Below are positions 14,801-60,437 of a DNA stretch of 64,000 nucleotides, in pieces (the stretch's first letter is position 1; each line of letters opens with the position of its first letter). The position numbers and the translations under genes were made by a program. This DNA comes from Diacronema lutheri (lineage: Eukaryota; Haptophyta; Pavlovophyceae; Pavlovales; Pavlovaceae), in contig JAGTXO010000053.1 of assembly GCA_019448385.1 (NCBI GenBank), positions 161,119-225,118 on the forward strand, written 5' to 3'. The notes under the pieces were generated by a model. The model made no database searches and was not told the origin of the DNA. It saw only the letters and a program-made list of their open reading frames with translations.

Positions 14801-16570
14801 GCAAACTTGAGTTCTCCAGCGCCACGCGTCACGGCGTGCACGACGATCCGGTCCTCGTGCCGAAGGTACTGCACGTAGAGCGCTTTGCTCAAGCCGAGGA
14901 CGTGCATGCCGAGCTGCAGCTGATCGCGCTGCGGCTGCGGCGGCCCGTCATCGCGCGCCTTGGCGTCCGCCTTGGTGAGCGTCTCCACCTCGAAAAGGAC
15001 CTGCTCGTTGTCGCCGGCGAGGATGGCGAGCCCGTCCGGCGAGAAGGCGAACGGCGCGCTCTTGTCGTGCGGGTCCGCACGCACCATCAGCAGGTTGCTC
15101 ACAACGGTGATGCCGTACGCGGCCGCCAGCTTGCGCAGCGCGACGGCCTCGCCGAGGATGCTGGTCCGCACCTCGCGCCGCAGCCGGTGCATGTACTCGT
15201 CAATGCGCGTGTCGTGCGCGACGCCGGCGTTGTCGTTCACCCCCCCGACGTCGCCAACCTTGCTGCCCGTGACCTTTTCCCATCGCTCGTCGTGCCAGCG
15301 CAAGCTGCGCTGCGCCTGCGCGCCCGCGCCGACGGCGTCGAGCACGCGGCGCAGCGCTGTGCCGTCGAGCGCGGGCACGGGCGCGCGGCCAGCCGCATAG
15401 ACCTCGTCCGCTCGGCTGGCCGCTGCGTCGGCCGTCCGCTTGGCCATTCCGAGCACGTCCTCGACCGCAAGCTTGGCTGGCGCCGCCGAGCTCCCGTGGC
15501 GATTCTCCCAAAGCGCGAGGAGCCTGCCAAGGGAGGGCGTGCCCGTCAGGCGGTCCTCGACCACGTGCTTCAGGCTCGCATCGTCGCCCAGCGCGGCCGC
15601 CACAGCTCAGAACACGCGCGCGTGGCGCGCTTTCCGCTCGGCACGCGCGCCGCCGTCGTCCGCCGCGCGGCGGATGGCGTCGCTCACACGCGCAACGCGG
15701 AGCGAGACGACGGCGTGCGCCGGCGCGTCGGCGGCCACATCGAGCGTGTGCCGCCGGATGGCCAGCTGCCCATCGCCCATGCGCGGCGGCAGCGACGCGC
15801 ACGCCGCGACGGTCGTCGTGCCGGCCACGCTGTCGCACAGCCAGCTCGCCTCGCCGCCGCCCGCAAACTCGAAGGTCGCAAAACCCTCGCGGCCGAAAGC
15901 GCGACGAAGTGGTCGAGCACCGCCTCGTTGATCGCGCGCGCCGCCGGCCACGTCGATGCGCCGCCAGCAGCGCCAGCCGTCGTGCCGCGCGTAGCGCTGC
16001 ACCTCGCAGGGCAGGTGCAGCCGGACGCGCGCACGCCGTCCGTCCGCGTCCGCGGCAGCTCGAGCTCGCGCACCTTGGGGCAGAACCAGAGCGGATTGGA
16101 CGCCTCGAGGCACAGCACGACGAGCCGCCCGTCCGTGCCGACCAGCGCGCGCGCGTCGCGCAGCAGCTCGACGGCGAGCTCGGACGTTGCCGTGCGCAAG
16201 GTCGGCTGACCCTTCGAGCGGTCGGGCGGGAAGAGGCCGCCGCCGACGAGTCGGCGGCGAGCATAACGAGCAGCGGCGGCGGCGGCGTCCGCGGCACCTC
16301 CCGCCCGCAGCTGCCATCAACCCATCTAGGTCGGAGCTCGTGCAGAGGGCCTTGAGCTCGACGCGCGCGCCGGCGCCCGTCTGCTTGGAAAACGTGGCGA
16401 GCATGGCGCACGTGCTCGCCCTCGCGCCGCACTGCCAGCTGACGCGCGCGAGGAGCCCTTCGAGCGTGTCCGTTTAGCGCGGCCGCGTGACCGCATCGAG
16501 CACAGCCGGGCGGAGCTGGAGGCTGCCGAGCGTGACGCACAGCACCGCCTCGTGGTGGACGCGTAGCAGC
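11801..16570 (-). pseudogene. Giant element copy A, region X (upstream of Fanzor)
   Basis: Near-identical over most of its length to copy B (33418-38600). Visible blocks are the segment with LEGLLARVSWQCGARAS (about 16480), a DGRLVVLCLEASNPLWFCPK block (about 16110), the YqaJ-like exonuclease (14776-15603), CVVRLCGFGVDLSKSIR (about 14300) and a long basic/Pro/Ala-rich tail. Decay includes TAG at 14776-14778 where copy B has Trp, TGA at about 14149 where copy B has Trp, a deletion of about 75 codons near 15390 relative to copy B, and frameshifts. The 5' side stops at about 16570 against a Helitron-tail fragment. Confidence 0.65.
14776..15603 (-). pseudogene. YqaJ-like (PD-(D/E)XK) exonuclease domain, copy A, Lys to Glu
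   Basis: The 275-codon open stretch carries FAFSPDGLAILAG, EVET and PPQPQRDQLQLGMHVLG followed by LYVQY, the order of a YqaJ/lambda-exonuclease-type core (Asp, ExK, then Q in the RDQLQLGM helix). The expected ExK reads E-V-E here (codon 14983-14985 GAG), while copy B reads EVK (AAG). That substitution should abolish catalysis. It ends at a TAG. Confidence 0.7.
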
Positions 16571-17065
16571 TCCTTAATGCACAGGCGCCGTCGGCGCCAT
16601 TTCTGCGCCGCTCGCGTGACGGCCGCCCACCTCCGTTGGCGCCGCCAACGCCGCCGTGCGCGGCCGGCGCGGTCGCTCTGAGCGCGCTTGCTTCTGCGGC
16701 CGCCATATCGCCGTCGCCTCGCCCATGCCCGCGCCCCGCGCCGCCCCCTTCATCGCGGCCTCGTCGCGCGCCACGGCCACTGTACTCTCCCCGCCGACGT
16801 AGCCTCAGCTTTTCTCGGTACACGAGGTGCGCGGGCATGGGCGAGTAGCTTTCACCAGCCCGCCACAGACCCCCCCCCCCCCCCCCCTTCCCTTTTGCCG
16901 CCTTACCGGATTGGCGCAAAGCGGATGCGTGACTGATGGGCCACGCGCGAGGCGGCGACGTACAAGTTGTGTTTGAAGCACGGATCGGCGAGCTACACAC
17001 CCGCGCACTCGAGCACTTACCCCTACGCCTTGTCGGTCGTCATCGCACATCCTCTGTGAAGGCAA
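16571..17065 (-). pseudogene. Helitron helicase C-terminus plus tail R1 fragment
   Basis: On the minus strand the helicase end is recognisable across frames (LADPCFKHNLYVAASRV at about 17000-16940), followed by the R1 basic block (16800-16640) and the CAPSAPF-type segment (about 16590). It abuts the broken 5' end of copy A. Confidence 0.5.
16870..16887. repeat. Poly(C) tract, 18 nt
   Basis: An uninterrupted run of 18 C inside the Helitron fragment. Confidence 0.95.
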
Positions 17066-24299: not shown

Positions 24300-25717
24300 C
24301 TGACGCGACGCTGGCGCTTCGCCTCCGGCGCCGCGTCGCGTGCGGACGCGAGCGAATCCCGCGCGTTGCCGCCGGTCGTGCCGGTGCCGGCAGCGGCAGC
24401 GGCAGCGGCGGCGGCGGCGGCAGCACCAGCACTGCCGCTGCGGCCGCGGCCGCGGCCGCGGCCGCGGCCACCGCTGCGTCCGCCGCCGCGTCCGCCGCCG
24501 CGGCCGCCGCCGAGGACGCCAACGCCGCTGCCGCTGACGCCGGCGCCGCCGCCGCCGCCGGCGCCGCCGCCGCCGGCACCGCCGCCGCGGCTGCCGGCAC
24601 CGCCGCCGCCACCGCCGCCGCCGGAACCGCCGCCGCCGCCGCCGCCGCCGCCGCCCGCCTCGTCTTCGTCCACCTGCAGCACGCCCTCGTCGTGCTCTCT
24701 CTCGCGACCGAGGGCGCGCTGCCAAAAGGCCTTGACGCGCTTGAAGCGGCCGGGCTCGGACGTGATGCGCTCATGCCTGCCGAGGTGGTCGGCGACCATG
24801 TCGAGCACATCGTGGTAGATGCAGCGCGCCGCCGTCCAGTCGCGGTGGTAGATGATGCCGCACGCGTCGCACCGCGTCGCCCGCCACGCGCCGCGGCCGC
24901 TCGGCGAGCTGCGCGCGTACGGGTGCAGCGTGCCTCCGCATCGCTGCAGCGGCGGCGGCTGCCCCGCCGCCTCGTCCGCCGTCGTCGGCGCGCCGTCGTC
25001 GGCGGGAGCGCCTGCGCCGGCGTCGGCGGCCGGCGCCGCGCTCGCAGCGGGCGCGCCCCGCACCTCGCGCAGCTGCGAACAGCACTTGGAGCTGAGCGGC
25101 TCGGGCACGAGCGTCGCCGCGACGCCGCGCCGGCGCAGCGCGCAGAGCACGCCGACGCCGAGCGCCGGCGCCTTGCCGCGCACGCAGCCGCCGCCGCGCG
25201 ACCGGTGGAGCCAATCGCCGAAGAGCACGAGCAGCTGGTCTGGCCGCAGCCCTCGGTCGGTCGCGTGCGCGCGCACGATCCGCGCCGCCGCGCGCGCGCA
25301 CTCGCGCCGGCTCGCGCCGCCGCGCCGCTTGCGCGCGCGCAGCCGCGCGCGCGCGCCGTACACGGGCAGCGTAGCCCGTCGCACGCGCTCGTGCGCGCGC
25401 GCGTAGGCGGCCTGGTCGTTCGCGCCGAGCGCGGTGCGCCCGCCGTGCGCCGCGCCGAGCTCCGCCTCGAGCGCGGCCGCCGTCGGCGGAGCACGCGGCG
25501 CGCGCGGCCGCGCGCCGCCCGGCCCCGACGGGCCGGCGCGCGCGCCCGGCTCGACGAGCGGCCGTTGCCGCGCGCCCTCGAGCTTGCTGCGCTCGCGCGC
25601 GTGCCCCGCGCGCGCGGCGCGCTCGCGCTGCGTGAGGCGAACCGAGGTGGGCTCGAGCCCGTGGCCGTTCGGCGCGTACGTCACGAAGCCGTCGGAGCCG
25701 GGGTCCACCGTGGCCGT
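24300..25717 (-). pseudogene. Fanzor C-terminal half: RuvC, zinc ribbon, Gly/RGG tail (copy C)
   Basis: RuvC-I is VDPGSDGFVTYAPN, starting 10 bases after a TAG at 25718-25720. RuvC-II is LLVLFGDWLHRSRGGG (about 25245), followed by the Fanzor-style alternative Glu motif LVPEPLSSKCCSQL (about 25105). Two Cys pairs of the zinc ribbon flank GTLHPY (CCSQL..., RCDACG), and RuvC-III is YHRDWTAARCIYHDVLDM (about 24850-24790). All expected nuclease elements are present. A long Gly-rich, RGRGRG tail and a KRQRR basic motif follow, perhaps an added RNA-binding/nuclear segment. The TAG and a frameshift near 25815 separate it from its N-terminal half. Confidence 0.8.
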
Positions 25718-25720
25718 CTA

Positions 25721-27450
25721 GAGGCCGTGCACCTCGATCGCCTCGGCCAGCTGCTTGGGCGTCGCCTCGTCGAACGTGCCGTTGGGATCGCGCCAATCGT
25801 CGAGGAAGGACTTGCTGCCGCCGGGCGGCGGCGGCTGAACACCGGCACGACCGCCTGCCAGGCGTGGCCGTTGTGGCGCAGGGACACCGCCGGCTGCGGT
25901 CCGGCGGACGCGATCGCGGGTGGGACGGCGGTGCCGACATACGTGGGCCGCTGCTCCGCCGTCACGTCGCTGCCGGGCAGCTGCTGGCCTGTCCACCGCA
26001 TCGCCCGCTCGTCGAGGCTGACGAAGTGGCTGAAGATCATGTCCCGGACGCGCGGGTCGCTGGTCGCGCTGTGCGGGTCGTCGTGCGGCACGCCGTCGGC
26101 CGTCGGCAGCTCGCGCGCCCACTCGCGGACGAAGGCCGTGTCGTCCTCGTCGAGCAGGAGGTACAGGTCCTGCGCGGACAGGTCGACAAAGCGCTTCTGC
26201 ATGCTCATGCGCCGGGGGCAGAGCGCGTACGGCGGCGGCTCGCCGGTGACGTGCGTGTAGAGCATCGCGAGGCGCGCGAGCAGCGACGCGCCCATCGCCG
26301 CCTTATCCGGCTGCGCGGCGCACGCAAGGGAAGGAAGGGGGGGAGGGGGGGGGTGGAGGTCGGGGAGCACGTCATCAGCGCCGTCGAGCGCTCCGCGCGC
26401 CGTGGCCCTGCTGCGCGCGCGCGCGGCACGTCGTCCGCGCGGCGCGCGCCCGTCCATGCCCGGCCGCGGCGCCGCGCCGCGGAGCGCGCGCGCGCGGGGC
26501 GCGCCGCGGCACGCGCGCGCGCCGCGCGGACGGCGCGGCCACCGTCGCGCGGCCGGCCCGTGCGTAGCCCCCTCCGTCCCCGCGCGCGCCGCGCGGCGCG
26601 CGCGCGCGCGCGCGCGCGCGCGCACCGTCAGGAAGTAGTTGGTCGTGTGCCTGACCTTGGGGCCATCCGTGCTGTAGTCGCATGGGAGCACGAGCCAGTC
26701 GGCGTGCTGCGCGAGCGCGGGCGGCAGCCGCGGCGCCGCGCCGGCCGTGTCGCCGGACCACAGCTTCTTGAGCAGCGTCGCGACGTCCGCGTCGCGCTGC
26801 TCATTCGACGTGCGCGCGCCGCGCGGCTTGGCGGCCTCGTCCGCGTCGACCGCCGCGCGCAGCAGCGCGCGCAGCAGCTTGTACGCGACGCGGCGCGGGT
26901 GCATCTCGTACGCGGTGGAAATCTGCTCCGCCTCGGTCGCGACGCAGCCGTCGAGCGAAGGGTGCGAGCGCGTTGTCGGCGCGTCGCCCTGCGACAGCCG
27001 GTCAATGTGCCGCTGGTTGCGCGCCCGCTTCGCCGCGTTGGCCTCGCCGAGCGGATGGCCGCGCTTCTGGTCGGGCGGCAGCTCGATCTGGCGGATCAGG
27101 TTCTCCACGTCGTCCTCGCCCTTGGGGTAGCCCTTCAGCTCGTCGTCTGGGCGCTGCAGCTCGTCGCCGGGCGAGCACTGCCCGGCGTTCGGCAGCGATG
27201 TGTGCGCGCGGTCGTTGAGCACGTTGTACGTCATGCGCGTGCTGGCGTTCGCCTCGTCCACGACGTGCATCAGCTTGACGCCGTACTTTGCCCGCCCGCG
27301 AAAGGCGCCGTCGCTGAGCTCCAGGGTCCGGTACTCCGTGTGCCAGCCCCGCGGCTTCTGCAGGCAGGCGATGCGCTTGCCCGTCGCGTCCGGCGGCTCG
27401 GCCGGCGGCTCGGCGCTCGCGCAGCACGCGCAGGCGGACGCGTTGGCCGC
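25721..27450 (-). pseudogene. Fanzor N-terminal half, giant element copy C
   Basis: In frame with the upstream region X. Blocks: AKYGVKLMHVVDEANASTRM (helix matching VHRLTTQASRVVNKVVRDEA in copy B), AYEMHPRRVAYKLLRALLRA, VRHTTNYFLT, then after the intron ASLLARLAMLYTHVTGEPPP, DPRVRDMIFSHFVSLDERAM and AWQAVVPVF. A frameshift at about 25815 in a C-rich run passes to SFLDDWRDPNGTFDEATPKQ and LAEAIEVHGL, then TAG. Without those two lesions it would continue straight into RuvC-I. Confidence 0.7.
26311..26625 (-). other. Predicted phase-0 intron (315 nt) in copy C Fanzor
   Basis: From CTGACG|GTGCGCGCG at 26625 to a CCCTCCCCCCCTTCCTTCCC tract and GCGCAG| at 26311. It contains a (GC)n purine-pyrimidine run (about 26590-26622). 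Length is a multiple of three without a stop, so it reads through unspliced, but only the spliced product aligns with copies A and B (HTTNYFLT | PDKAAMGASLLARLA). Confidence 0.6.
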
Positions 27451-28477
27451 GCCGGCCGCCGGCGCGGCCGTCCGCGCGGCGCGGCGCGGCGTCGCGGCCG
27501 GCTCCGCGCACTCGCCGCACGCGAGCACGCCCCCGCCGACCGCGCCGGCCGCGCGCGGCCGCGCCGCCGCCGTGCCGCGCCCGGACGCCGGCGCGGTGCT
27601 CACCGGCGACTTGGGGAGAGCGGCCTCGCGCTTGGCCTCCGCGCGCAGCCACGCCTCGAGCAGCCAGCCGGCCGCCTGCGCGTCGCGCTCGCGCGGCCAC
27701 ACGCGCCCGGCGTTGCCCAGCAGGCCGCCGCGCTCCACGCGCAGCACGCACAGCGCGAGCGCGAGCGCCCACACGCCCGCGCGGCCGGCGGGCGGCACGT
27801 ACGCACGCGAGCGCTCCGACCGGCGCAGCTGCTCGAGCGTCGCGTCGCCGCCGAACAAATGCGCGACGAGCCCGCCCGCCCAGCTTGTCGCCGCCGCGCC
27901 CGCCGCGCCATCGCGCGGCGCGCGCTCGAGCAGGAAGAACCGGCGCCAGCGGCCGCTCGGACCTGCGCGGTGCTCGTCGGCGGCGAGCAGGAGGAGGAGC
28001 TGCGGGTCGGCGCCGTCGCTCGGCGAGTGGACGAGCAGCAGCGCGTCGCAGTCGGTATCGTCGAGACGCTCGCGCAGCCGCTTTGGCGCGGCCTCGTGCC
28101 GTGTGTCGCGCGCGTCGAGCAGCGCGCGCGTCTCGCCCGGGCCGAAGAAGGCGCGGAACCCGCGCGCCGGGTCGCGCACCTGGGCGAGCACGCCGTCAAT
28201 GGCGGCGGGCGCCACGACCGCATGCTTGCCGCCCGATGCCTTGAGCTCGTCCAGGCACCGCGCACGAGCCTCCCCCGGCGTCGGCGCCGCCGACGCCGGC
28301 GCGGACGCGACCGGCTGCTGCGTCACCGCCGCGTCGCGCGCTCGCAGCTGCGCTGCCGTCTCGCGCAGGATGAGCGCAAACACCGCCGCGCGGTACTCGG
28401 CGAGCTGCGCCGTCGCGTGCACGTTGAGGGCAAGCACGCTCGCCGCGGCAGCGAGCGCGCTCTGGTCGCCGCCGCCA

Positions 28478-28510
<33 letters not shown>

Positions 28511-30627
28511 ACGTTGGCGGCGGCGTCACGCGCGCCGAGCGCGAGCCAGGACATGACCACGACGCAGGCGGCGCGCGAATCCGCCTTGCGCTCGACGCGC
28601 CAGCGGCCGCCGACCGCGCGCCCGTGCGCCGTCGGCTGCGCCGACCGCGCGGTCGCCGGCGCAGCGCCGTCGACGGGCGGAAGCGCGCGCAGGCGGAGCG
28701 CGCGCGCGAGCCCGCGGACGAGCTGCTCCGCCTGGCGCTCGATCTCCTTGGCGCGCTCGCGCACGGCGATCGGCTTGGCCCCCGTGGCGCGCTCCGGCGC
28801 GGCGGTCGGGTTGCAGTGCTGCACCCAGCCGCCCTCGCCGTCGCGCACGACGACCACGACGGCCGCGCCGACCCGCCGATTGGTGCTGGCGAAGAGCAGC
28901 GCGAGGTGCGTGCACTCGCCGAGGCCGTGCTCGTCCAGCGCGGTCTGCGCGCGATCGGGCTCGCCGCCGCCGTCGGCGACGGCGGCGAGCAGCGCGCGCG
29001 CGACGGCCGGTCCGGCCGTCCTCCACGGCCGGCCGGCTTTGTCCGCGGCGCGGTTGATCGCGCCGAGCTCGGCCTCGACGACGATCGAAGGCACCTCGGT
29101 GTACTTGCCCTGGAGCGCGCGCACGTCGTGCGTCGACAGCGGCCGTTCGCCACACGTGTACGTGAGCGGCGGACCGCCGGGTCGCGCCGCCGCGTCGACG
29201 CGCGCGGTGTCGGCCGCGAGCCGCGCGCGCGCCTCGGCATCGCGCTTGCGCTTGCGCGGCAGCGGCGGCAGGTGCGGCGCGACGCGGCGGCCGCGCGACT
29301 CGCCGGCCGGCTCCGCGCTCGGCGCGCCGGGCGCGCCGGCCGGCGCGCCCGCCGCGCGCGCGCTCGCGCCGCCGCCGCGCGCGCGCGCGCCGTCCGGCTC
29401 GGCCGCGTACACGAGCAGCAGCGCGCGGCCCTCGAGCGCGACCCTCGCGGTGCACGCGCGCCTGCTCGCGGCGGCAACGCGCATCCAGTCGCGATCGCCG
29501 GGCGCGAGGGCAGCGCAGGCGACGAGCCGCTCCTTGTCGTCGCACGCGTCGCGCTGCACGACGGCGACCAGCCTGAGCACGGCGGCGGGCTCGGCGTCGG
29601 CGTCGGCCCCGGCGGCGTCCGCGGTCGGCTCGGCCGGCTCGGCGCCGCGCGCGACGCGCAGCGCGAGCCGCTCGGGCATCTCGAGCAGCGACTCGGTCGC
29701 GTCCGCGACGTGCACGACGACGAGCCGCGGCGGGTTGCGCACCCCGTGCGCGCCGAGCGCGCGCGACACGGCGGCGCTGGCGCTCGCGCCGCGCGCGTCG
29801 GCGGCGCGCAGCGCGACGAGCGGCCACGCGGCCGACGCGCCGCGCGCCGAGGGCGCGCCCGGCGCCGGCGGCTCGCCGCCGCGCAGCGCGCGCTCGAGCT
29901 CGTCGCTCGCGCCGCACGCGCGCAGCACGTCGAGCAGCGCGCGCAGCGCGCCGTCGGCCGACAAGCCGCGCGCCGTGCCCGCCGGCCAGCCCGCCGACTG
30001 CTCGAGCGCGGCGGCGAGCGGCGCGACGCGCGCCGACTCGGGCGCGCTCTCGTCATCGGGCTCGAGCGCGTTGTGCAGGCGCGCGAGCGCGCGCGCGACG
30101 GCCGCGGCGCCACTGCCGGGGGCGCGGCTCGCCGCGCGCACCGCGCGCCGCCAGGCCGGCACGAACATGAGCGCCGACACGAGCGCCGCGAGCGCGCGCG
30201 CCTCGCGCGCGTCGCTCGCGCCGAGGCGCGGCGGCACGCGCGCGGCGCCGCGCGGCGCGGTGCCTCGGAAGCGTGGGCTTAGCGTGTAGGCAAGGTGCTG
30301 CGGCACGCCGCGCGCCTCCGCGAGCGCGCGTCCGTCCTCGACCTCGCGCCACACCATCGCGATCGCCGGCGTGGCGCGCGCGAGCCAGTCGGGGTCGGCG
30401 GGCAGGTGGATCACGACGAGAATCGGCGCCCAGTCCAGCCGCGGGTTCTTGTGACGGTCGGGCACGACCCACACGAGCAGCACCGTGCTCTCCGCGCCGC
30501 ACGCCGCCTCGTAGATCCTGGGCTGCGAGCGCCAATCGGGCTTGACGCGCAGCGCCCACGCGTGTTCGATGGCAGCGGCGCGGTCGCCATCGAAGTGAAC
30601 CGTCTTCACCTCGCCGATGACGTGCAT
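27451..30627 (-). pseudogene. Giant element copy C, region X fused in frame to Fanzor
   Basis: More than 1000 codons run without a stop into the Fanzor half. I take ATG 30627 (MHVIGEVKTVHFDGD) as the start because the same MHVV/MHVI start block occurs at 41927 in copy B. Features: GEVKTVHF (possible ExK nuclease remnant), ESTVLLVWVVPDRHKNPRLD, NPPRLVVVHVADATESLLEM, a basic RKRKRD stretch, CGERPLSTHDVRALQGKYTE and a Cys-rich block (ACGECAEP, ACACCASAE). It is diverged from copy B and I cannot assign enzymatic function. Very high GC. Confidence 0.5.
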
Positions 30628-30639
30628 CTTATAAGCGGG

Positions 30640-30796
30640 AATTCCGCCCCTTCGCGTCGCGGGCGTCGTCGCGAGATGCACGAGATCGTGGCTGTTTCGG
30701 CGCACATCTGCGAAGATGCGCGCGCTGCTGCCGCAAAGCGTGCTCGTGCTCAGCCTCGCGGCCAAAGCGCCCGCCGAGCTGCGTGCCGACACTCAC

Positions 30797-30830
<34 letters not shown>

Positions 30831-31500
30831 CCCCTTGCCTCGCTAGGCTTGTCGCGGCGCAAATGGCTCGCTTGTGCGTGCTCGGCCAGCTGACCAGCCT
30901 GCAGACGGCGGCGGCGGTGACACACAGCGCTCTGCCACGCCGTTCGAGGCCTCCGAGGACAAAGGCCGCTGGCGCCAAGGCGGGCGCACGGCCTCGCCCC
31001 CTCTTAGCGCGCAGCTCGCGCTCGCACAGGTGCCCCTCTCCTTTCCTCTTCCCCTTCCGTTCCATTCCCCCCTCGCGATGCGCCGGCAGTGACCACGGCT
31101 TTTGCGGGCGCAGCCTCGGCTGCGTGCTACCTGATGCCGATCGATGGCCACCTGATGCCGATCGATGTCGATGGCCACGACTTCGTCCGTTGGGCGTGCC
31201 GGCAATGGTCGAAGCGGGGTACGCAGCTGTCAAAACCGGCCGCATGAAGCGGCATGAGGCCGGGCGAAAAGCGAGCACCTGGCTGGCCTTAGCAGCCTCG
31301 GCAATGGGCTGCTCGCCCGCCGCGTGGCCGACGGGCCCAGGCACATTGCACGCGATAAGCACAGGCGCACAGGAGGGCGCCGTCGGCTCCGTTCGTTGAC
31401 CAGAAGACGCGCAGGTTGGCTGACCGTAGGCGCCACGGATCGGGTGCGCACGGAGCGCCATCGCCCTCTGAACCGCGCACAGCACGCCCGGATCGGGTCG
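30640..31500 (-). mobile_element. Leader (5' flank) of giant element copy C
   Basis: 30661-30790 and 31090-31500 match 41940-41986 plus 42424-42540, and 42590-43030, of copy B in order, so both copies share a 5' terminus. It carries the R1-like segment (VFWSTNGADGA on the minus strand, about 31400). It provides the empty-site sequences that prove the palindrome insertions in copy B. Confidence 0.6.
30798..30829. repeat. Poly(C) tract, 32 nt
   Basis: A run of 32 C in the copy C leader. Copy B lacks it at the equivalent place (about 42535), so it arose after the copies separated. Confidence 0.95.
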
Positions 31501-31800
31501 GCACATGATTATTATTTATTGTGCGGCGAAAGAAGAAATTGCTGCAGCCATACTCGTTGCTGGTCCAAGGTCCATACATCCTTGAGACCCCTCCGCGTTT
31601 GAAACAGAGCTGAGGTGGACACCGAGCCCTGGAATGCTATAATCGAGACGAGTTTGTCAGGCTCGGAGATGGCGCGCACTTTCAAGAACGGCCCCCGCCC
31701 CCCAAAGGGGTCTCCAGCCCTCGGGCAGCGCCCCCTTATCGAGACGGAGTTTGTCAGACGGGTTCGTCACCGTTCAACCGGCCAACGGAAAAGCGCACTT
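31501..31800. repeat. Short repeat cluster, MITE-like
   Basis: Includes the inverse of 8333-8376 (31586-31632), two GAGACGAGTTTGTCAG-type words, and GGGGTCTCCAGCCCTCGGGC AGCGCCCCCTTAT, which matches the arms of the hairpin at 45862-45943. Confidence 0.55.
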
Positions 31801-32233
31801 TTCGGTAGATGACCAGCCGCAACCGAGCGAGAGCCTCTTTTCCTCAGTCCGTTGGGCGGTTGCGCTCCTCCGAGAGGCGCGCGGAGCGTTTGCTGCATTC
31901 TTCGCCACGGAGTGCTGCGTACTACCCTCGCCCGCTCCAACCCGGACGACCCTTGCGTTTCGCCGCCGCCTACGCCATCGCTGCCGTCGCCGCCGCGCGC
32001 CGCCGCCAAGCCAGCGCTGGCGCGCGCCGCCAAGACCGAGCCGCCGCGCGGTGGCGGTGGCAAGCCGCGTGTGCACTCGCCGCCGCCTCCGCCGACACGG
32101 GTGACCGTGCCGTGCGCCAACGCCTGACACCGACTGGTGCGCACGTGGCTGCGCGCGGCGGCGGCGCGCGCGCTCTGGGCGCGGCAGGCGACGCGACAGA
32201 CACGACCGGCAGCAGCCGCGCCTCGCGCGCACA
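31801..32233. other. No recognised gene; 3' break of copy B
   Basis: Copy B similarity to copy A stops just past the conserved intron donor (about 32230). The rest reads as arginine-rich open frames with no family signature. Confidence 0.5.
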
Positions 32234-33417
32234 TTGTGCGTTCGCAGCGGCGCCACGTTGTACCGCGGCGGCCGGCCGGTCAGCTGCGTGTGGATATGCG
32301 CGAGCCGGCAGAGCAGCGCCTGCCCCTCGGCCACGTGCTGCAGGTTGCGGATCTGCACGAGGAAGTAGCGCGTCGTGTGCCGGTTGTAGTTCCACCTATC
32401 CGTGGGCGTGCACCCGTAGTCGATGTTGTGGAGGACCATGTCGGGCAGCTGGCGGTCGAGCGCGGCGGGGCAGCCGACGCGCGCGTCCTCTACGTCGCCG
32501 CGCAGCAGCCGCTCGCACAGCTCGCGCACGCGCGCGTTTCGCTGCATCTCGGGCAGCGCGACGAGCGCCTCGTCGCGCTCGACTGCCGCGCGGACAACGT
32601 CGCGGAGCAGCCCGTTCACGACGCGCGATGGGTGCATCAGGCACGCGACGGACAGCTGCGTCGCCTCCTCCGCGAGGATCTGCGTGAGGCCCACCGCGCA
32701 GACGGGCTGGACGCCCTCGGCCATCTCGCCGACGGCGCGCGCCGTCGCCGCCTTGGTCTGCGCGGCGGCTTGCTCGGTGGGCCTGCCCGTGGGCGCTGCA
32801 CCGTACCTGCTCTCGTCTTTGTGCCAGCCGATGGCCGAGAAGATCGCACGGACGGCTCCGTTGTCCGTCGTGGTCGGCGTGTGCACGCTGGTCGACGGGC
32901 CGCCCGACGCCGCGCCGGCAGCCCGCGCGCTCGCCACCGCAGCCTCGTCGCGCACCACCTTGTTCACGACGCGGGACGCCTGTGTCGTGAGCCTGTGCAC
33001 GGCCGCCGCGATGCGCCGCAGCTCCTTCCGCGCACAGGGGTGCGCCGTCACCGGCCCCGCGTTAACCGTCGAAAAGCCCGGGAGCACGCTGCCGCGCGTG
33101 CGCGCCGTCGCGCCGCCGGCGGTGCGCGCGCTCGGCGCAGCAGGCTCGTCCACGCGCGCGCTCTCGACGCCGCGCGCGCGGGGAACGCTCGGCGCGCGCG
33201 CGCCCGCGGCGCCGCGCGCGCTCGCGGCGGCACCCGCCGCGGCGCGCTTGCCCGCGGCGCCCGGGACGCCGTGCGCGCGAGGCGGCGCCGACGCCAATGC
33301 TGACGCCGCGCCCGCGCCGCCGCTGCCGCTGCCCGATCCGCCCGCGCGCCGCTTCTGCTCGTCGCGCGTCTTGTGGAACCGGGCGACGAGGTCGCTGCTC
33401 ACGTTGGCCTCAGGCTC
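32234..33417 (-). pseudogene. Fanzor N-terminal half, giant element copy B
   Basis: Open and undamaged from PEANVSSDLVARFHKTRDEQ to VAPLRTHN, where the predicted intron donor (GTGCGCGC) falls and similarity ends. It follows region X in the same frame after a single TGA (33418-33420). Contains an Ala/Ser/Gly linker, ELRRIAAAVHRLTTQASRVV, CLMHPSRVVNGLLRDVVRAA, HTTRYFLVQIRNLQHVAEGQ. The RuvC half is missing. Confidence 0.65.
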
Positions 33418-36400
33418 TCACGCGTCGGCGCTCTCGTCGTAGCGCAACCACCTGATTGTCCGGAACTGGAACGTTGCCCTCTTGCCCGCCTTGCGGCGCT
33501 CGTCGACGACCGCCCCGACGTCGTACGTGCGCGCCTCCTCGTCGACGCTCGCGCCCGCCGCGCTCGCGCCCGTGTCCGGCCACCCAGCGACCGTCCCGCC
33601 CAGCCTCTCGGCGGCCGCGCGCAGCTGCCGCTCGCGCTGGGCGGCCGCGGCGCCTCGCGCGACCAGCGCGGGCAGCATGCCCGCGCCGCCCGCGAGGCCG
33701 TGCGCGCCGACGCTGGCGGTCATCAGCGCGTCGAGGCACGCGAACGTTGCGAGCGCACGCGCGCCATCGTCGCCGCCGCGCGGCTGCGAGCGCACGACGG
33801 GCGATGGCCGCGGCTCCCCCTCGGCCGCGAGCAGCGGCCAGATCGCATTGGCCAGCGCGACGGCATGCGCGCCGACCGCGACGGCCACGTCCGCGTCGAG
33901 CGGCGCAAAGTCGTAGCGCACGAGCGCGGCCGGGCGCGAGTCGTCCGTCGGCCGGTCGGCGACGAGCAGCCCGACCGGGCGCGGCGGCTCGCCGGACGGC
34001 GCGGCGACGGGCACGCAGAGGAGCACGACGAGCAGGCGCGGCGTGCCGCCGAGCAGCGCGCGCGCGGCATCCGCCCCGTCGGCTCCGCCGCGCGCGGCCG
34101 CGGCGAGCAGCTCGGCCGCGCGCGTCGGGCCCAGCGCCGTGCGCGCTTCCTTGCGCGCGCGTGCGCGCGCCGTGTACGCGGCGCAGGCGTCATCGAGCAC
34201 CGCCGCGCTGGGCGCGGTGCCAGTCGTCGCCCACGCGCGCAGCGCGTCGCGCACCCGCGTGACGATCGCCTGGTCGACTGCCGCCTCGCCGGCAGCGTGC
34301 GCCGGCGCGCACGCCGGCGGTGCGGCGGCAGGCGCGAGCGCGGGCGCGCCGCTAGCGCCGTCGGCGCCGACGGCGCCGTCGGCGCGCCGCCACGCGAGTT
34401 TCGCCTCGATCTGCTGCCGCACGGCGTGGCAAAGCCGGTCGATGCCGCGCGCGTCGTCAAGCGCGGCCAGCGCGTCCTCAGCGGCGGGGCGGTCGCTCGC
34501 GTCCGCGACGGCCTGCACGGAGAGCAGCGCGGCCGCACGCGCGTTGCACGCGCTCTGCGGCTCGGGCGCGAGCGCGAGCTCGAGCTCGAGCGGCGACGCG
34601 CCTCGCGCCGCGGCGATCGCAACCATCCGCACGTCCAACCGCTGCACCAGCGCCATGTGTGCGTCGCGCGGCGCGCCCGTCGACGGCGCGCGCGAGCGCG
34701 TCGCCACGAGCCCGAGCGCGCGCGCCGGCGCGCCCGCCGGCGTGTGCAGCACGAGCAGCGCCGCGCCCGCCAAGCTCGCGTTGCGCGTGACGAGCGCGAA
34801 GATGCGCGTCGCCTCGTGCGCGCCCACCGACGCCCAGATCGCAGCGCGATCGGTGTCCGTCTGCGCGTCGCACAGGTCGCGCACGTCGTCCGGCGCGAGC
34901 AGCGCGCCGCCGCCGGCGGAGCGCGCGACGATCGCCCGCGCCTCCGCCACGAAGACGGCCTGCGGCAGGTCGGCGTGGCGCGCGTCGACGATGGCGCGCG
35001 TCGCGTGCACGCCGAGCTCCACGCCGCGGTAGAAGGCGCGCGCGTTGGCCGCGCGCGCGTGCGCCGGCCGTCCGTCCGCGTTGCGCCTCGCGCGCGCCTG
35101 CTTGCTCGTGCGCGCGAGGCCGTCGCGTGGCGGTGGCGGCAGCGTGGCGAGGAAGCGCGCGGCGGGCGGCGGCGCGCGCACGCCGCGCTGCCGCCGTGCG
35201 ATGGCCGCGAGCCGCCGGCCCGCCGCGCTGCCGCCCGCGCCGACGTGCTGCCAGCGGTTGAGCGCCGCCGGTGGCGGCGGCGGCGGCGGCGCGGCGGCGG
35301 GCGGCGGCGCGACGGCGGGCGGCGGCGCGGCGGCGGGCGGCGGCGCGGCGGTGGGCGGCGGCGCGGCGGCAGGCGGCAGCGGCGGCGGCGCGGCGGCGAC
35401 GGCAGCACCAGTCGGCTTGTCCGCCCACGCACCCGAGACGCTGTCCCAGGCCTTGCCCGGTGGCGCGCGCCCACGCGGCCGCGGGTGGCGGGCTCGAGCG
35501 GCAGGGGGCGGGCGGCCGGCGCGCCAGTCGAAGACAGGTGCAACCGTGGCGGCAGGCGCCGAGTGCAGCGCGTCGGTCACAGAGCGCGTGGTGCGCGCGG
35601 CGACCGTGGCACGCATGGCGGGCGGGCGGTGAGCAGCGCCCGCCGGCGCGCCGGCGGGCGCGGCAGCCGGCGCGCCGGCGGGCGCGGCCGCCTCGAGCCC
35701 GGCGGAGGCGCCGCGCTTGCGCTTGCGCGTGCCGCCGCGCGTGCGCCTGCGCGCGCGCCCGCCGCGCGCCCGTTTGGCCTGCGCGTCGCCAGCCGCGTCG
35801 CCGGCCGCGTCGCCGCGCCGCACGTAGACGACCGCGAACGCCTCCTCGCCGGTCCCGTCGACGCCGCCGCGCGCGCGGCGCAGGACCGACCGCCACTGCA
35901 GCCGCCGCGCGCGGCCGGGCTCGCACGCAAACCAGCGCCCACCGCGCCTGACGACGGCCACAAAGTCGTCGTCGCGCCGCCCGCGCCGGCGCGTGCGCAG
36001 CAGCACGCACTGCACGTCGAGCCAGCCCTCGTGCCAGTCGGCCGTGCTGGGGCGACGCGAATCGATTTTGAGAGATCGACGCCGAAGCCGCAAAGCCGCA
36101 CGACGCACACCACGTTGTCGACGCGCACGTGCTCGCACAGCAGCGCGCAGATGTTGGCGTTGACCGTCCTCTCCTTCTCGGCCGCCTCGGCCGTGCCGAG
36201 GGCGGCGGCGTCGCCTGCCGACTGCCCAAGGTACTCGACCACCCGCTCGACGGCCGCGCCCTCCGCACGCGCTGCGCTGGTGATCGCCGCATCGCCGACG
36301 GGCTCGCGCAGCGCCGCGATCGCGCCTTGCAACGCCGTCGCGTCGCCCGTCGCCGCCGTCGCTGCCACCGCCGCCGCGCTCGCGGTGCCGTGCGCGACGG

Positions 36401-39400
36401 CGTGCAGCGCGGCGGCGCGCGCGGCGGGGATGCGCTCGTCCAGCGCGAGCACGAGCGGCGGCCCGGCCGGCGTCTGCTGCCGCCGGTGCCGCCGGCTCGC
36501 AGCCGGGTGGTCGGCGCGCGCGCGCTCGAGCCGCGCGCGCCGCTCGACGACGCGCGCCCAGAAGGCCTGCACCCTCGGCTGCGCGAATGCAAGCCAGCCG
36601 GCGCCGCGCGTCACGACGTGCACGACGATCCGGTCCTCGTGCCGAAGGTACTGCACGTAGAGCGCTTTGCTCACGCCGAGGACGTGCATGCCGAGCTGCA
36701 GCTGATCGCGGTGCGGCTGCGGCGGCCCGTCCTCGTGCGCCGTGGCGCCCGCCTTGGTGAGCGTCTTCACCTCGACAAGGACCTGCTCGTTGTTTTCGGG
36801 GAGGATGGCGAGCCCGTCCGGCGAGAAGGCGAACGGCGCGCTCATGTCGTGCGGGTCCGCACGCACCATCGGCAGGTTGCACACGACGGTGATGCCGTAC
36901 GCGGCCGCCAGCTTGCGCAGCGCGACGGCCTCGCCGAGGATGCCCGCGGTCGTCGCCTTGGTCCGCACCTCGCGCCGCCGCCGGTGCACGTACTCGTCGG
37001 TGAGCGTCTCGTGCGCGACGCCGGCGTTGTCGTTCACGACGTCGCCAACCTTGCTGCCCGTGACCTCCTCCCATCGCTCGTCGTGCCAGCGCGGGCTGCG
37101 CTGCGCGGGCGCGCCCGCGCCGACGGCGTCGAGCACGCGGCGCAGCGCTGTGCCGTCGGGCGCAGCAGGCACGCGCGCGCGGTCCTGGGCCTCGCGAGCG
37201 TCGAGGACGCAGCCCGTAGTGGAATCTTGGGGTAGGTCGAGCTTGCTCGCCTCGCCGTAGCGGCTCTCCAGCTGGCGTGCGTCGGCGGGGCCGCCGTCCG
37301 TGCGCGCACCCGACGCGCCCGCCAGTGCACGGGGCGCAGCGTCCGAGACGCCCGCCGCGCCCGCGCCGCCGCTAATCTCGCCAGCGCACGCGCGCGCCGC
37401 GACCTGCGGACGGCCAGCCGCAGGGACCTCGTCCGCTCGGCCGGCCGCTGCGTCGGCCGTCCGCTTGGCCACGTCGCGCACGACTTTGACCGCGAGCGTG
37501 GCTGGCGCCGTCGAGCTCCCGTGATGTTTGTCCCAACATTTGAGCAGCCCGCCAAGGAAGGGCGTGCCCGTCGGGCAGTCCTTGGGCACCTCCGCCAGGA
37601 TCGCGTCGACGCGTAGCGCGGCCGCCACATCGCAGAACGCGCGCGCGGCGCGCGCCATCCGCTCGGCGCGCGCGCCGCCGTCGTCCGCCGCGCGGCGGAT
37701 GGCGTGGCTCACTTGCGCGACGCAGAGCGAGACGACGGCGTGCGCCGGCGCGTCGGCGCCCACATCGAGCGTGTGCCGCCGGATGGCCAGCTGCCCATCG
37801 CCCATGCGCGGCGGCAGCGACGCGCACGCCGCGACGGTCGTCGTGCCGGCCACGCTGTCGCACAGCCAGCTCGCCTCGCCGCCGCCCGCAAACTCGAAGG
37901 TCGCGAAGCCCTCGCGGCCGAAAAGCGCGACGAAGTGGTCGAGCACCGCCTTGTTGATCGCGCGCGCCGCCGGCTGCGTCGATGCGCCGCGGGCAGCGCC
38001 ACCTGCCGCGCCGCGCGCATCGCTGCACGTCGCAAAGCAGGTGCAGCCGGACGCGCGCACGCCGTCCGTCCGCGTCCGCGGCAGCTCGAGCTCGCGCACC
38101 TTGGGGCAGAACCAGAGCGGGTTGGACGCCTCGAAGCACAGCACGACGAGCCGCCCGTCCGTGCCGGCCAGCGCGCGCGCGTCGCGCAGCAGCTCGACGG
38201 CGAGCTCGGACGTCGCCGCGTGCACCGCCGGCTCGCCCGTCGCGCGGTCGGGCGGGAAGAAGCCGCCGCCGACGAGCGGGCTGAGGCAGCGGCCGAGCAT
38301 CACGAGCAGCGGCGGCAGCGGCGTCTGCGGCGCCTTCCGCCCGACCGCAGCCGCCGTCAGCCCGGCCAGGTCGGAGCTCGTGCGGAGGGCCTTGAGCGCA
38401 ACGCGCGAGCCGGTGCCCGCCTGCTCGGAAAACGTGGCGAGCATGACGCACTTGCTCGCCCTCGCGCCGCACTGCCAGCTGACGCGCGCGAGGAGGCCTT
38501 CCAACGTGTCGTTTTTGCGCGGCCGCGTGACCGCGTCGAGCGCCGCCGGGCCGAGCTGGAGGCTGCCGGGCGTGACGCACAGCACCGCCTCATGGTAGGC
38601 GCGCAGCAGCTCCCTCGGCAGCTGCTCGGCGGGCGTCGCCGCCTGCTCGCCCACCCACCGTGCACCGTGGCCGCCGTCGCCCGCGCCCGCGAGCCGGACC
38701 GCCGGCCCGCCCGTGATCGCCGAGGTCGGTGACGTGCCGAGCGCGTCGACGAGCGCGCGCACGGGCGCGACACGCCTGCGCGCAGCGTCCGCGCCGACGG
38801 CGAGCGCGGCGATCCGAGCGCCCTCCCATGCGCGCTCCCTCGCGTCGTCCCGCGCGGCCGCCGGTGCGGCGCCCAGCCGCGCGCCGGGCGGCAACGCGCA
38901 CGCCGCCGCGACGACCTCCGCGCGCGCGCCGGCAGCGTCGGGCGCGTGCAGCTGCGCGAGCGCGCCAAAGAGCGCGGCGGCCGAGCGGTAGCGGCCATGC
39001 TCCGCGCGACGAGCGCGTGGAGCACGCGCAGCGCGGCCACGCCCGCCTGGTCGAGCGCGTCGCCGGGGCGCGCTCGACGATCGCTTTGAACACGCCGTGC
39101 GTGGCGCCCTCGTCAAACTCGGCGGCGCCCGCCGCGTGCGCGCACCATCCGTGCACGCGCGACGTGGGCGCGTCCACGGCGCGCTGCACGACGAGCACCG
39201 TCGGCCGGTCGACGCAGCCGAGGCTCACCGCCGCGTGCTTGCCCTCGAGCAGCGCCGCCGCCGCAGCCTCGACCAAGGCGTCATCAGGCGCGTCGCCGAC
39301 TACGACGGCACAGCCGTCGCCGTACTCGGCCTGCATCGCGGCGACGCACGACGCGACAAAGTCGTCGCCCGCGGCCGCCGCGTGTCGCGCCGCCAGCATC

Positions 39401-40640
39401 CGGCGCGCGATGGCAAGCAGGACGTACTCGGCCGGCGCGCGCGCGGCGCGCGCGCGAGGCGCGCCGGCCGCGCCGCGTGCGCCAGCGCGTGCGCCTCCAG
39501 CGGCCGCAACGGCCGAGGCGGCTGGAGCGGCGGTGAGCGTTCGCCACGCGCGCTTCGCCGGCCGCGTGATGGGCGATGCACCCGCCGTCGCACCGCCCGC
39601 AGCAGCCGGTGCGGCCGCCACAGCGCCCGCCGCAACGCCACTCGTCACGACGCCCGTGGCGGGCGGCGCGGCGGCGGACGCGGCCGCCTCGACGGGCGTC
39701 GCGCAATTACCGCCAGCGGTCGTGGACGCGCCCGGCGACGCGTCGGCGAGGAGGGGGCGCAGCACGCCGCGCGCGAGCGCGACTCGCACGGCGAGCGTCA
39801 GCGCGCGCAGGCGGTCGGAAGGCGAGGCGTCGCGCTCGGCGTCGGCGGACGTGGCGGCAGCAGGCGGGGCGGCGGGCGGCGCGGCGGCGGACTGGGCGGC
39901 CGCCGGCGCAACCTCGTCGGCCTTGGCCAGCCAGACGAGCCCGGCGACTGCGAGCACGACGCTGTACGCGCCGACATCGTCTTCCGCAACGCGCGCCAGC
40001 CGGGCGTGGGCGTCGGCCTCGGACACGGCGACGTGGAAGAGCACGTCGTCGCGGGCAGCTTGCTCGGCAAACTGACGCAGCTGCTTGGCCATCGTCACGC
40101 TGGCGACGGACGCCTCGCCCGCCTCTGCCTCGACCTGCTCGTCCTGGCCGATGGCGGACGCGCCGGCCTCGGCGCCAGTGTCGAGTGTCCGGCGGCGCTC
40201 GAGGGCAAAGCCACGCGCACAGACGCTCTGGAGGCCGCCGAGCGCGCCCGCCTTCTCGTGCAGCGCGCACGACAGCTCGACCACCGAGTCCACGCGCGTC
40301 GCGGCGGCGGCCCCCCGCTCGCCGCGCGTGGCCGCGCGCACGACGGACACCGTGAATTGCGCGCGCTTCGCAGCGCGCGCCGACGCGCACGCGTGCTTCA
40401 GGAGCCGGCAAAGCGCGGGCCTTTGCACCGCTGCGCCCCGCGTGCACAGCAGCAGTTGGCCGCGCTCGTCTCCCAGCTCCTGCTCGACGGCGGCCTCGAG
40501 CGCGTCGTCCGTCAGATCGCCGTGCTCCGTCGAGGCGAGCGCGCGCGCAGCCGCGAGCGCCAGCTCGCATGCGCCCACGCTCGCGGTATGCACCACGACA
40601 AGCTCTGGGATCACCCTGGTGCGACCCTCGTGCACAAGTA
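33418..40640 (-). pseudogene. Giant element copy B, region X with YqaJ-type exonuclease
   Basis: About 2400 codons. From the start (ELVVVHTASVGACELALAAA), blocks are PAEYVLLAIARRMLAARHAA, GDALDQAGVAALRVLHALVA, ELLRAYHEAVLCVTPGSLQL, LEGLLARVSWQCGARASKCV, DGRLVVLCFEASNPLWFCPK, the YqaJ core (36590-37070), NICALLCEHVRVDNVVCVVR, GWLDVQCVLL, GGRWFACEP and EEAFAVVYVRR (weakly like a USP C-terminus), then a Pro/Ala-rich linker and RLVVLLCVPV-type blocks ending FQFRTIRWLRYDESADA and TGA. Frameshifts at about 39060, 38995 and 36050 break it into long open pieces. Role unknown beyond the exonuclease; probably a mobile-element polyprotein. Confidence 0.6.
36590..37070 (-). other. YqaJ-like exonuclease domain, copy B, catalytic triad intact
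   Basis: Reads GEAVALRKLAAAYGITVVCN, FAFSPDGLAIL, VLVEVKTLTK (ExK; Lys codon 36765-36767) and PPQPHRDQLQLGMHVLG. The Asp/ExK/Gln order and the RDQLQLGMHVLG helix are those of YqaJ/lambda-exonuclease-like PD-(D/E)XK nucleases, which degrade or resect DNA ends during phage and viral recombination. The domain is uninterrupted here. Confidence 0.75.
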
Positions 40641-59430: not shown

Positions 59431-60254
59431 ATGCAAGGCCCGCGAGTGTGCGGCCGAGGGCGAGCCAAACTTCACTGTGCCCCCGTGGTGGGGCCCGACA
59501 CGTTTCCTCGCCGGAGTGTCGGAGGGCTTGTCAGCGCACGACCGAGCGTCGGCCTCGCGCTCGCGCCCACGGGTCCAGCTCGTCTGTCATGGTGCAACCG
59601 GCCGAAGACAACGGTGGTTCTGTTGCTGGCGCGTCCTATTACGCCTCGCTCGCCCTCGGTTCCGCGCACGCGCACGCGCACGGATGCCGCCCGCGCGCGC
59701 GGGCGATCTGCATGCTGACAACGGTAGCGCCACGACGTCCAGGTCGCGCACTCCGGCGCCGACGACGTCGGCTGCAGCCCAACCGACGACCCGCGAAAAG
59801 ACAACGCGCCGCGCGCGAAATGCATCGCGTCGCCAACCTTGTCGCCGACGCGTCCCGCGGTGCTTCGCCCGTCCTCAGCCCCGCGCACGGGCACGGGAGC
59901 CGCCCACGCGGCTGACCACGCACGCCGACGATGGCAGCAGCAGGATGGTGGCGGAGGCGACACCGGTCGGTCCGCCCGCGCCCTTCGGCGCCGCGACGAC
60001 GCAGCTCTGCGGCGCATCGGCAGGCGGCGGCGCCGACGACGGCGCCGCCTCAATGCGCGCTCCGCCGGCCGTCGGTCAGTTAGCCAGCGTACGGGCCGGT
60101 GCTTCGGCCACGGGCGACGGCCGGCGCGGACTGAGGCCGCGCGCATCGCCCTTGTTCTGCACGGCGGCTGCAACGACGGCACCGAGCGCGCACGGCGAGC
60201 ACGTGGCGCTCGCCGCTACTGATCGATCGGCGGTAGCGGTGGTTGAGCGCGGCA
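59431..60254 (+). other. Unrecognised Arg/Ala-rich open region
   Basis: A plus frame (GTG 59411 to about 60250) has a Cys-rich start (VCLACECKARECAAEG) and low-complexity continuation. No family signature and no supported start. Confidence 0.25.
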
Positions 60255-60436
60255 AAGCAGCCGACGCGCGCGCCCGCCACGTTGCCGCGCAGCAGCAAGC
60301 TCGCACAGCTCGCTCGCGCACTCGCGCGTTTCATTGCATCTCGGGCAGCGCGACAAACGCCTCGTCGCGCTCGATTACCGCGCGGACGACGTCGCGGAGC
60401 AGTTCGTTCACGACGCGCGATGGGTGCATCAGGTAC
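60255..60436 (-). pseudogene. Short fragment of the Fanzor N-terminal region (copy D)
   Basis: Near-identical to 11150-11320 and 32480-32640 (minus-strand sense: LMHPSRVVNELLRDVVRAVI, ERDEAFVALPEMQ). Fragment only. Confidence 0.7.
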
Positions 60437-60437
60437 G

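What the first reader, a model, noticed from the sequence alone, without database searches (positions are those of the whole stretch)
24300..40640. Giant reading frame joining a YqaJ-like exonuclease region to a Fanzor nuclease
Seen: in copy C region X runs without a stop into the Fanzor N-terminus, and in copy B the two are in the same frame separated by one TGA (33418-33420). Copy B region X has an intact YqaJ core (SPDGL, EVK, RDQLQLGMHVLG); copy C has the full RuvC plus zinc-ribbon half. Known: YqaJ/lambda-type exonucleases resect DNA ends for recombination, and Fanzors make RNA-guided cuts. Inferred: a mobile element pairing a guided cutter with an end-resecting enzyme in one polyprotein. 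I know of no described element with this architecture. Caveat: YqaJ and RuvC are each clear in only one of the copies, so the intact ancestor is reconstructed from relatives.
Basis: partly seen in the sequence, partly recalled or inferred. Interest (0 to 1): 0.88.

Follow-up and report, generated by a model that had tools for sequence, protein, structure and literature searches.

The report
Giant exonuclease-chromodomain-Fanzor transposon protein
A microscopic marine alga carries many copies of a very large DNA element whose main gene appears to join, in one long reading frame followed by a short intron, a predicted DNA-end-chewing enzyme, a chromatin-binding module and an RNA-guided-type DNA cutter; the stretch first noticed holds decayed copies of it and of a relative.

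Summary
The window is the end of a contig of the haptophyte Diacronema lutheri. In that genome, 73 of 110 scored matches to the YqaJ region lie in an open frame of at least 4,480 codons. With one more, unproven intron the gene would encode 6,213 aa. Copy B's TGA (33418-33420) is the chromodomain tryptophan codon; the 100 listed of 230 counted sites all read TGG. The gene sits in a 31.0-kb element with sharp ends, a PIF1 helicase and a ubiquitin protease; no Helitron Rep domain was found in it. Two corrections: in copy B the YqaJ core is in a different frame from X, and copy C is a diverged Fanzor lineage in which no YqaJ was found. Not shown: one translated protein, a guide RNA, any activity, or selection on the fusion (substitutions between copies look neutral). 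No paper describing this architecture turned up in the open-access library searched.

The parts
36435..37547 (-). Copy B: YqaJ/RecE-like exonuclease region (core about 36678-37088)
   Evidence: Pfam YqaJ E=0.015, below cut-off, on the window ORF; 96-97% identical to the other 109 scored matches; the same domain in the intact copy matches PHROG 434 at E=1.5e-18
33421..37371 (-). Copy B: open frame carrying region X (1,317 aa), in a different frame from the YqaJ core
   Evidence: X piece 33532-35010 is 97-99% identical to 86 further scored matches
33370..33522 (-). Copy B: chromodomain remnant, interrupted by the TGA
   Evidence: position transferred by me from the intact copy, where Pfam Chromo E=1.1e-12; alignment; copy B itself gave no Pfam Chromo match
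33418..33420 (-). TGA in copy B, at the conserved tryptophan codon of the chromodomain
   Evidence: all 100 listed of 230 counted genomic sites read TGG
32151..33417 (-). Copy B: Fanzor N-terminal half; the alignment to the intact copy ends at 32151 and the RuvC half was not matched
   Evidence: 94% identity to C71 down to position 32151
36122..40580 (-). Copy B: upstream part of the giant frame, 94.8% identical to the intact copy, with several frame-shifting indels
10578..16573 (-). Copy A: more decayed fragment of the same element (89-91% identity), from upstream of YqaJ to just past the Fanzor intron
29968..30622 (-). Copy C: 655-bp segment 97% identical to the upstream ORF of the intact element (C71:165298-165952)
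26626..27063 (-). Copy C: Fanzor N-terminal match of a diverged lineage (39% identity)
24665..25825 (-). Copy C: Fanzor RuvC and zinc-ribbon half (35% identity), with one in-frame stop just before RuvC-I
   Evidence: Pfam TNB E=1.2e-4, below its cut-off, on 24692-25252
60238..60437 (-). Small isolated fragment of the Fanzor N-terminal part (88%)

Best explanation
The window holds decayed copies (A, B) of a 31.0-kb, high-copy mobile element of D. lutheri, and a relic (C) of a related Fanzor lineage. The intact element carries a giant gene whose main exon joins, without a stop, a YqaJ/RecE-type PD-(D/E)XK exonuclease, region X, a chromodomain and the N-terminal half of a Fanzor1-like protein; a 130-bp intron leads to the RuvC/zinc-ribbon half. 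SHOWN by sequence: the order of the domains, the open frame, the element ends, and co-residence with a PIF1 helicase and a UCH-type protease. INFERRED mechanism: the chromodomain holds the complex on nucleosomal DNA, the Fanzor makes an RNA-guided double-strand cut, the attached exonuclease resects the end to a 3' single strand, and the PIF1 helicase drives long-tract copying of the element by break-induced replication. This would help maintain or recopy a 31-kb element; how it reaches new sites is not explained. My odds: about 0.9 that the in-frame architecture is real, about 0.65 that it is made as one protein, about 0.25 for the mechanism.
For: 73 of 110 scored YqaJ-region matches lie in an open frame of at least 4,480 codons, 58 of 110 in 4,490-4,525. 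In C71 one frame (167223-180779, 4,518 codons) holds YqaJ (E=2.4e-4 in the long ORF, just under the cut-off; 5.4e-6 as a domain alone, over it), Chromo (E=1.1e-12) and the Fanzor N-terminus; the next exon holds TNB (E=2e-6, over cut-off). PHROG 434 RecE-like E=1.5e-18. The Fanzor motif D-X(185)-TS-xx-C4-RD is present. The exon junction LRTHN/VPRNVRL is also the one in the annotated D. lutheri protein KFE25_006464. A 45%-identical relative, P0003, covers 99% of a 444-residue query from the Fanzor exon. GC by codon position fits the sense frame: position 2 lowest in 15 of 15 full windows, position 3 highest in 13 of 15, one tie, one lower; a short last window past the intron was left out. Sharp ends: the 39 listed copies besides C71 stop matching at positions equal to C71:182854-182859; 5' end from three copies. 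PIF1 E=1.6e-24 with Pif1_2B E=5.8e-13; UCH E=4.3e-8.
Against: Substitutions between copies are nearly even over codon positions (for example 18/17/12 and 37/40/50; in L030 8 synonymous against 33 non-synonymous codons), with no sign of purifying selection; no formal dN/dS was run. Open frames in young copies could be inherited passively from one recent ancestor. At Pfam level the YqaJ match is marginal: scanning the genome with PF09588 reported only the C71 copy (28.2 bits) among 150 scored of 203 candidates. One PHROG hit of the domain, 19855, is named a virion structural protein (E=5.5e-9). No relative with the YqaJ-Fanzor link was found elsewhere, but the two protein searches were weak: they returned nothing at all, not even D. 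lutheri proteins. No transcript data could be searched. The structure prediction of the YqaJ region failed (mean pLDDT 36.5). No guide RNA was identified; I only folded the 3' end. Flanks of the copies compared differ and no duplicated target site was seen by eye in C71, C9 and C30, so homing at allelic sites cannot explain the spread. The PIF1 frame changes phase twice in C71, which may be introns or damage.
Confidence: 0.62

Rival explanations
1. The long frame is partly an accident of GC-rich DNA: YqaJ and chromodomain-Fanzor are separate genes (own promoters or start codons, or alternative splicing) whose frames happen to be contiguous and open.
For: The genome is 73% GC (PMC8379373, passages), an antisense frame of 2,902 codons is open over the same DNA, no purifying selection is visible between copies, and no transcript data linking the parts could be searched.
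Against: 4,518 codons against a shuffle maximum of 1,623; the same frame holds Pfam matches at C71:175587-176000 (YqaJ) and about 179286-179438 (Chromo); codon-position GC is consistent along the frame; 73 of 110 scored matches keep a frame of at least 4,480 codons.
Confidence: 0.28
2. The element is a Helitron (Helitron2-like) that captured accessory genes, as published for Fanzor1 in Chlamydomonas; the fusion is cargo without a role in mobility.
For: Fanzor1 in Helitron2 elements is published (PMC3627910, passages); Helitrons can reach 39 kb with captured gene fragments (PMC6431247, passages); a PIF1-like helicase, predicted hairpins near both ends (no control run) and no target duplication seen all fit.
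Against: Helitron_like_N (Rep) has one match in the genome, C63:35738, not in these elements; the ends are not TC...CTRR; the asymmetric terminal repeat candidate is no better than chance, 91 of 300 shuffles reach it.
Confidence: 0.3
3. The element is an endogenous virus of the giant-virus or mriyavirus kind.
For: YqaJ is encoded by many Nucleocytoviricota; mriyaviruses have 35-45 kb genomes, most encode a PD-(D/E)XK nuclease and one characterised member infects a haptophyte (PMC10962738, passages).
Against: No capsid, packaging ATPase, DNA polymerase or integrase among the long ORFs scanned by Pfam; not every ORF was scanned. A close-relative search of IMG/VR with the YqaJ domain found none; it would miss distant ones.
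Confidence: 0.06

Closest known systems
Fanzor1 in eukaryotic transposons, including Helitron2 elements CRe-1, 2, 3 of Chlamydomonas (Bao and Jurka 2013, PMC3627910)
   Same: TnpB-like C-terminal half with the D, TS-xx-C4, RD motif; multi-copy algal element; intron-containing gene
   Different: Published Fanzors are far shorter (recalled, below about 1,000 aa); the passages I saw in four Fanzor papers describe no exonuclease or chromodomain fused to them
RecE/lambda exonuclease/YqaJ recombinases of phages and large DNA viruses
   Same: Sequence match over the catalytic region (PHROG 434, PHROG 149, TIGR03033, PF09588)
   Different: Those are normally stand-alone or paired with an annealing protein (recalled); here the domain is in frame with a Fanzor in a eukaryotic element
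Chromodomain-bearing integrases of LTR retrotransposons and adintoviruses
   Same: A chromodomain in a mobile-element enzyme
   Different: Here it precedes a Fanzor, not a DDE integrase (LTR case PMC6338049, adintovirus case PMC11071296, passages)
Giant eukaryotic transposons: large Helitrons, Polintons, Teratorn, Terminons (PMC6431247, passages)
   Same: Size in the 15-40 kb range and accessory genes
   Different: No Rep in the element; no DDE or polymerase gene among the ORFs scanned; one gene takes up about half or more of the element

Membership tests
Fanzor/TnpB | D-X(125,275)-[TS][TS]-X-X-[C4 zinc finger]-X(5,50)-RD motif | tested here: met
   D-X185-TS-MH-C ... CPAC ... RD in the intact copy; motif definition from PMC3627910 abstract
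Fanzor/TnpB | Pfam TNB (PF07282) above its curated cut-off | tested here: met
   28.3 bits against 26.3 in the intact copy; window copy C only 22.6 bits, below cut-off; relative P0003 only 11.4 bits
Fanzor/TnpB | Guide RNA encoded at the 3' end of the element and RNA-guided cleavage | not testable with these tools
   Only a GC-rich hairpin near the 3' end was seen
YqaJ/RecE/lambda-type exonuclease | Family profile match over the PD-(D/E)XK core | tested here: met
   PF09588 27.2 bits against cut-off 22 for the domain alone, 21.9 in the long ORF; PHROG 434 E=1.5e-18; TIGR03033 E=3.9e-9 but below its cut-off; genome scan with PF09588 reported only the C71 copy
YqaJ/RecE/lambda-type exonuclease | PD-(D/E)XK fold in a model | tested here: inconclusive
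   single-sequence model, mean pLDDT 36.5; no fold search was run on it
Helitron | Rep (HUH) domain joined to a PIF1-like helicase | tested here: not met
   PF14214 hits only C63:35738 in the genome; the helicase ORFs show PIF1-type domains and no Rep domain
Helitron | 5'-TC and CTRR-3' ends with a 3' hairpin | tested here: not met
   ends CCTATATA... and ...CATCTA(TACG); a 3' hairpin is predicted
[quoted passage not shown]
   predicted hairpins near both ends, no control run; repeat candidate not better than chance, 91 of 300 shuffles
Giant virus or mriyavirus | Capsid, packaging ATPase or polymerase genes | tested here: inconclusive
   none among the long ORFs scanned by Pfam; not all ORFs were scanned and capsids can be missed by sequence

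The most novel reading that the evidence does not exclude
A previously undescribed giant mobile element spreads or maintains itself with a single protein of about 4,970-6,213 aa that binds chromatin (chromodomain), cuts at an RNA-chosen site (Fanzor) and directly resects the break (RecE-type exonuclease), while the element's own PIF1 helicase drives long-range copying. That would be a natural, one-molecule cut-resect-copy machine for inserting tens of kilobases.
Probability: 0.2. Interest if true: 0.93.

Novelty: new variant of a known kind. Interest (0 to 1): 0.8.

Why it matters
The role of Fanzors inside eukaryotic transposons is an open question. A Fanzor in frame with an end-resecting nuclease and a chromatin reader, beside a PIF1 helicase, suggests a concrete testable role: make a guided break, resect it and prime copying of the element. 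It would also be a natural example of linking a programmable cutter to a recombination nuclease, which is of interest for inserting large DNA. Many near-identical copies in a cultured alga make it testable.

Tried and rejected
Helitron assignment: considered from the helicase motif and hairpins, weakened by the absence of Rep and by the ends.

Telomere targeting: many copies end at contig starts. I searched for telomeric repeats (212 matches, 100 listed) but did not compare the positions systematically. Because contig ends coincide with the element's 3' boundary (C13; C90), I read it as assembly breakage in long repeats.

First 5' boundary (C71:150442): rejected, because that block is an independent 1.2-kb repeat; the boundary was moved to 151837.

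Region X as repeated Ulp1/papain-like protease domains: suggested to me by H...D...C patterns in the raw translation, but Pfam gave nothing; unproven and left out of the claims.

Selection test on near-identical copies: showed no constraint.

Structure of the YqaJ region: single-sequence model too poor to use. A second model could not be queued.

Protein database: YqaJ region as query gave none at E<=0.001 among 8,000 scored candidates and none at E<=0.1 among 2,229. PDB sequence search gave only E of 0.3 or worse for the Fanzor exon (best a Cas12f1) and 0.74 or worse for the YqaJ region.
Full report
WHERE IT IS. The window is bases 161119-225118 of contig C53, and it runs to the contig's end (225,118 bp). 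The assembly held here has 43.49 Mb in 103 contigs. The published D. lutheri NIVA-4/92 assembly has 103 contigs, 43.503 Mb, longest contig 3.042 Mb and 73% GC (PMC8379373, passages); contig C9 here is 3,042,068 bp, and a D. lutheri protein (KFE25_006464) lies on a contig of 1,863,016 bp, the length of C69. So the organism is the haptophyte D. lutheri.

THE WINDOW COPIES. All three lie on the minus strand. Copy B (40580-32151) and copy A (16573-10578) are fragments of one element, 94-95% and 89-91% identical to an intact copy elsewhere. Both carry frame-shifting indels. Copy C is different: its Fanzor halves are 39% and 35% identical to the intact family, no YqaJ match was found in it, and only 655 bp (29968-30622) are close, at 97%.

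INTACT COPIES EXIST. Searching the genome with copy B's YqaJ region gave 110 scored matches (of 241 candidates; copy B itself is one), all at least 96% identical to the query. In 73 of 110 the surrounding open frame is at least 4,480 codons and in 58 of 110 it is 4,490-4,525; in one of 110 a stop falls inside the match. The X piece gave 87 scored matches (of 295 candidates), all at least 97% identical and all but one over the full query. The TNB zinc-ribbon family gave 148 matches among 150 scored of 306 candidates, but these mix at least two Fanzor families.

ANATOMY OF ONE COPY (contig C71). One stop-free frame, 167223-180779 (4,518 codons), contains the YqaJ domain (Pfam E=2.4e-4 in the long ORF, 21.9 bits against a cut-off of 22; 5.4e-6 and 27.2 bits when the domain is scanned alone), X, a chromodomain (E=1.1e-12) and the Fanzor N-terminal half. 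An intron (180594-180723, GT-AG, 130 bp) leads to the RuvC/TNB exon ending at 182448 (TNB E=2e-6). The same junction, LRTHN/VPRNVRL, occurs in the annotated protein KFE25_006464, where a Fanzor fragment is joined to a SAM-domain gene; the genome paper says its gene models used RNA-seq evidence, but I do not know whether this junction had any. Upstream, a second possible intron (167219-167351, 133 bp, unproven) would add an ORF of 1,225 codons, making a 6,213-aa protein without internal stops; without it, the first ATG of the long frame would give about 4,970 aa. The nuclease identity is also supported by PHROG 434 RecE-like (E=1.5e-18), PHROG 149 exonuclease (E=1.6e-10) and NCBIfam TIGR03033 (E=3.9e-9, below its cut-off). 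Weaker signs: the genome scan with PF09588 reported only the C71 copy among 150 scored candidates, and a virion-protein family also matched (PHROG 19855, E=5.5e-9).

THE TGA. In C71 the codon is TGG, the tryptophan of the chromodomain. A 34-base pattern around it, allowing TGG or TGA and up to two mismatches, has 230 matches in the genome; the 100 listed all read TGG with no mismatch, and the other 130 were not shown.

IS IT CODING? For: dinucleotide shuffles gave at most 1,623 codons (mean 872, 200 shuffles, six frames) against 4,518. GC at codon position 2 is lowest in 15 of 15 full windows of the frame; position 3 is highest in 13 of 15, tied in one and lower in one; a short last window past the intron was left out. 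A relative of 45% identity covers 99% of a 444-residue query from the Fanzor exon (P0003; aligned). Against: an antisense frame of 2,902 codons is also open, and between copies substitutions are nearly even over codon positions, for example 18/17/12 (L030) and 37/40/50 (window B), so selection on the fusion is not shown. Recent copying explains the many open frames.

THE ELEMENT. 3' end: the 39 listed copies besides C71 stop matching at positions equal to C71:182854-182859 (the best 40 of 283 candidates scored). 5' end: the C9 and C30 copies stop matching C71 at about 151837. Length 31,018 bp. Internal query stretches were complete in the best 40 copies scored each time. No target duplication was seen by eye in the three copies with both flanks read (C71, C9, C30); both ends share CTATA, so a very short duplication or crossover core is not excluded. 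For C13 the contig ends at the element. Other genes: PIF1 helicase (E=1.6e-24, Pif1_2B E=5.8e-13), whose frame changes phase twice in C71, and a UCH-type ubiquitin protease (E=4.3e-8). No Helitron Rep domain. Five further ORFs scanned, one of them in the neighbouring 1.2-kb repeat, gave no Pfam match. The transposase is therefore unknown.

MECHANISM (inferred). Chromodomain for chromatin binding, Fanzor for a guided cut, RecE-type exonuclease for resection, PIF1 for strand-displacement copying. PIF1's part in break-induced replication and RecE/lambda exonuclease's part in recombination are established knowledge that I recall, not results here. A weakness: insertion flanks differ between the copies compared, so simple homing to an allelic empty site cannot account for the spread.

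WHAT IS IN PRINT. Searches of the held open-access library: Fanzor with YqaJ, no paper; Fanzor with chromodomain, three papers, two of which I read in passages without finding a fusion, the third seen only in the listing; Fanzor with Helitron, four papers, three read in passages, the fourth seen only in the listing; one more Fanzor paper read in passages (PMC11423790); further broader searches, mostly seen as listings. Fanzor1 in algal Helitron2 elements is published, and an uncharacterised Fanzor element is the most abundant interspersed repeat in the green alga Auxenochlorella (PMC12636532, passage). Most subscription papers are not held, so absence is not proven.

VERDICT. The architecture is real at the sequence level and new to me; the one-protein claim is likely but unproven; the mechanism is a hypothesis. 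Known kind (Fanzor in a eukaryotic mobile element), new variant.

Noticed in passing
window 3-1700 (minus), continuing left to C53:160833: Relic of a different, also multi-copy Fanzor family (93% aa identity to an ORF at C9:378667, with a stop and a small gap); its relatives lie in open frames of up to 1,779 aa, some with repeated hydrophobic N-terminal segments.
   Followed up: partly
window 55368-56611, 43218-43636, 4726-4992; C71:150442-151673: Independent repeat of about 1.2 kb with a minus-strand ORF (ELKSISYCPTRYG motif); many copies genome-wide. Two partial copies meet head to head near 43470 in the window, with 159-bp perfectly complementary arms 8 bp apart.
   Followed up: partly
protein P0004 (KFE25_006464, contig C69): An annotated D. 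lutheri gene joins a Fanzor fragment, across the element's own intron junction, to SAM domains: a possible host gene that captured element sequence, or an annotation artefact.
   Followed up: no
L028 (C49:210500-217336): A deletion derivative joins X directly to the RuvC half in one 987-aa frame, skipping the chromodomain and the Fanzor N-terminus.
   Followed up: partly
G000:C63:35738-36019: The only match to the Helitron Rep domain in the genome, in a 326-aa open frame.
   Followed up: no
L042 (C71:152500-157499) and the start of L041: The PIF1 helicase reading frame changes phase twice in the C71 copy; introns or damage. This stretch was not compared with other copies.
   Followed up: no
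C71:151837-151926 and the last 70 bp of the element: Sequences predicted to form hairpins near both ends; a relative (L026) keeps the 3' stem with a changed loop.
   Followed up: partly
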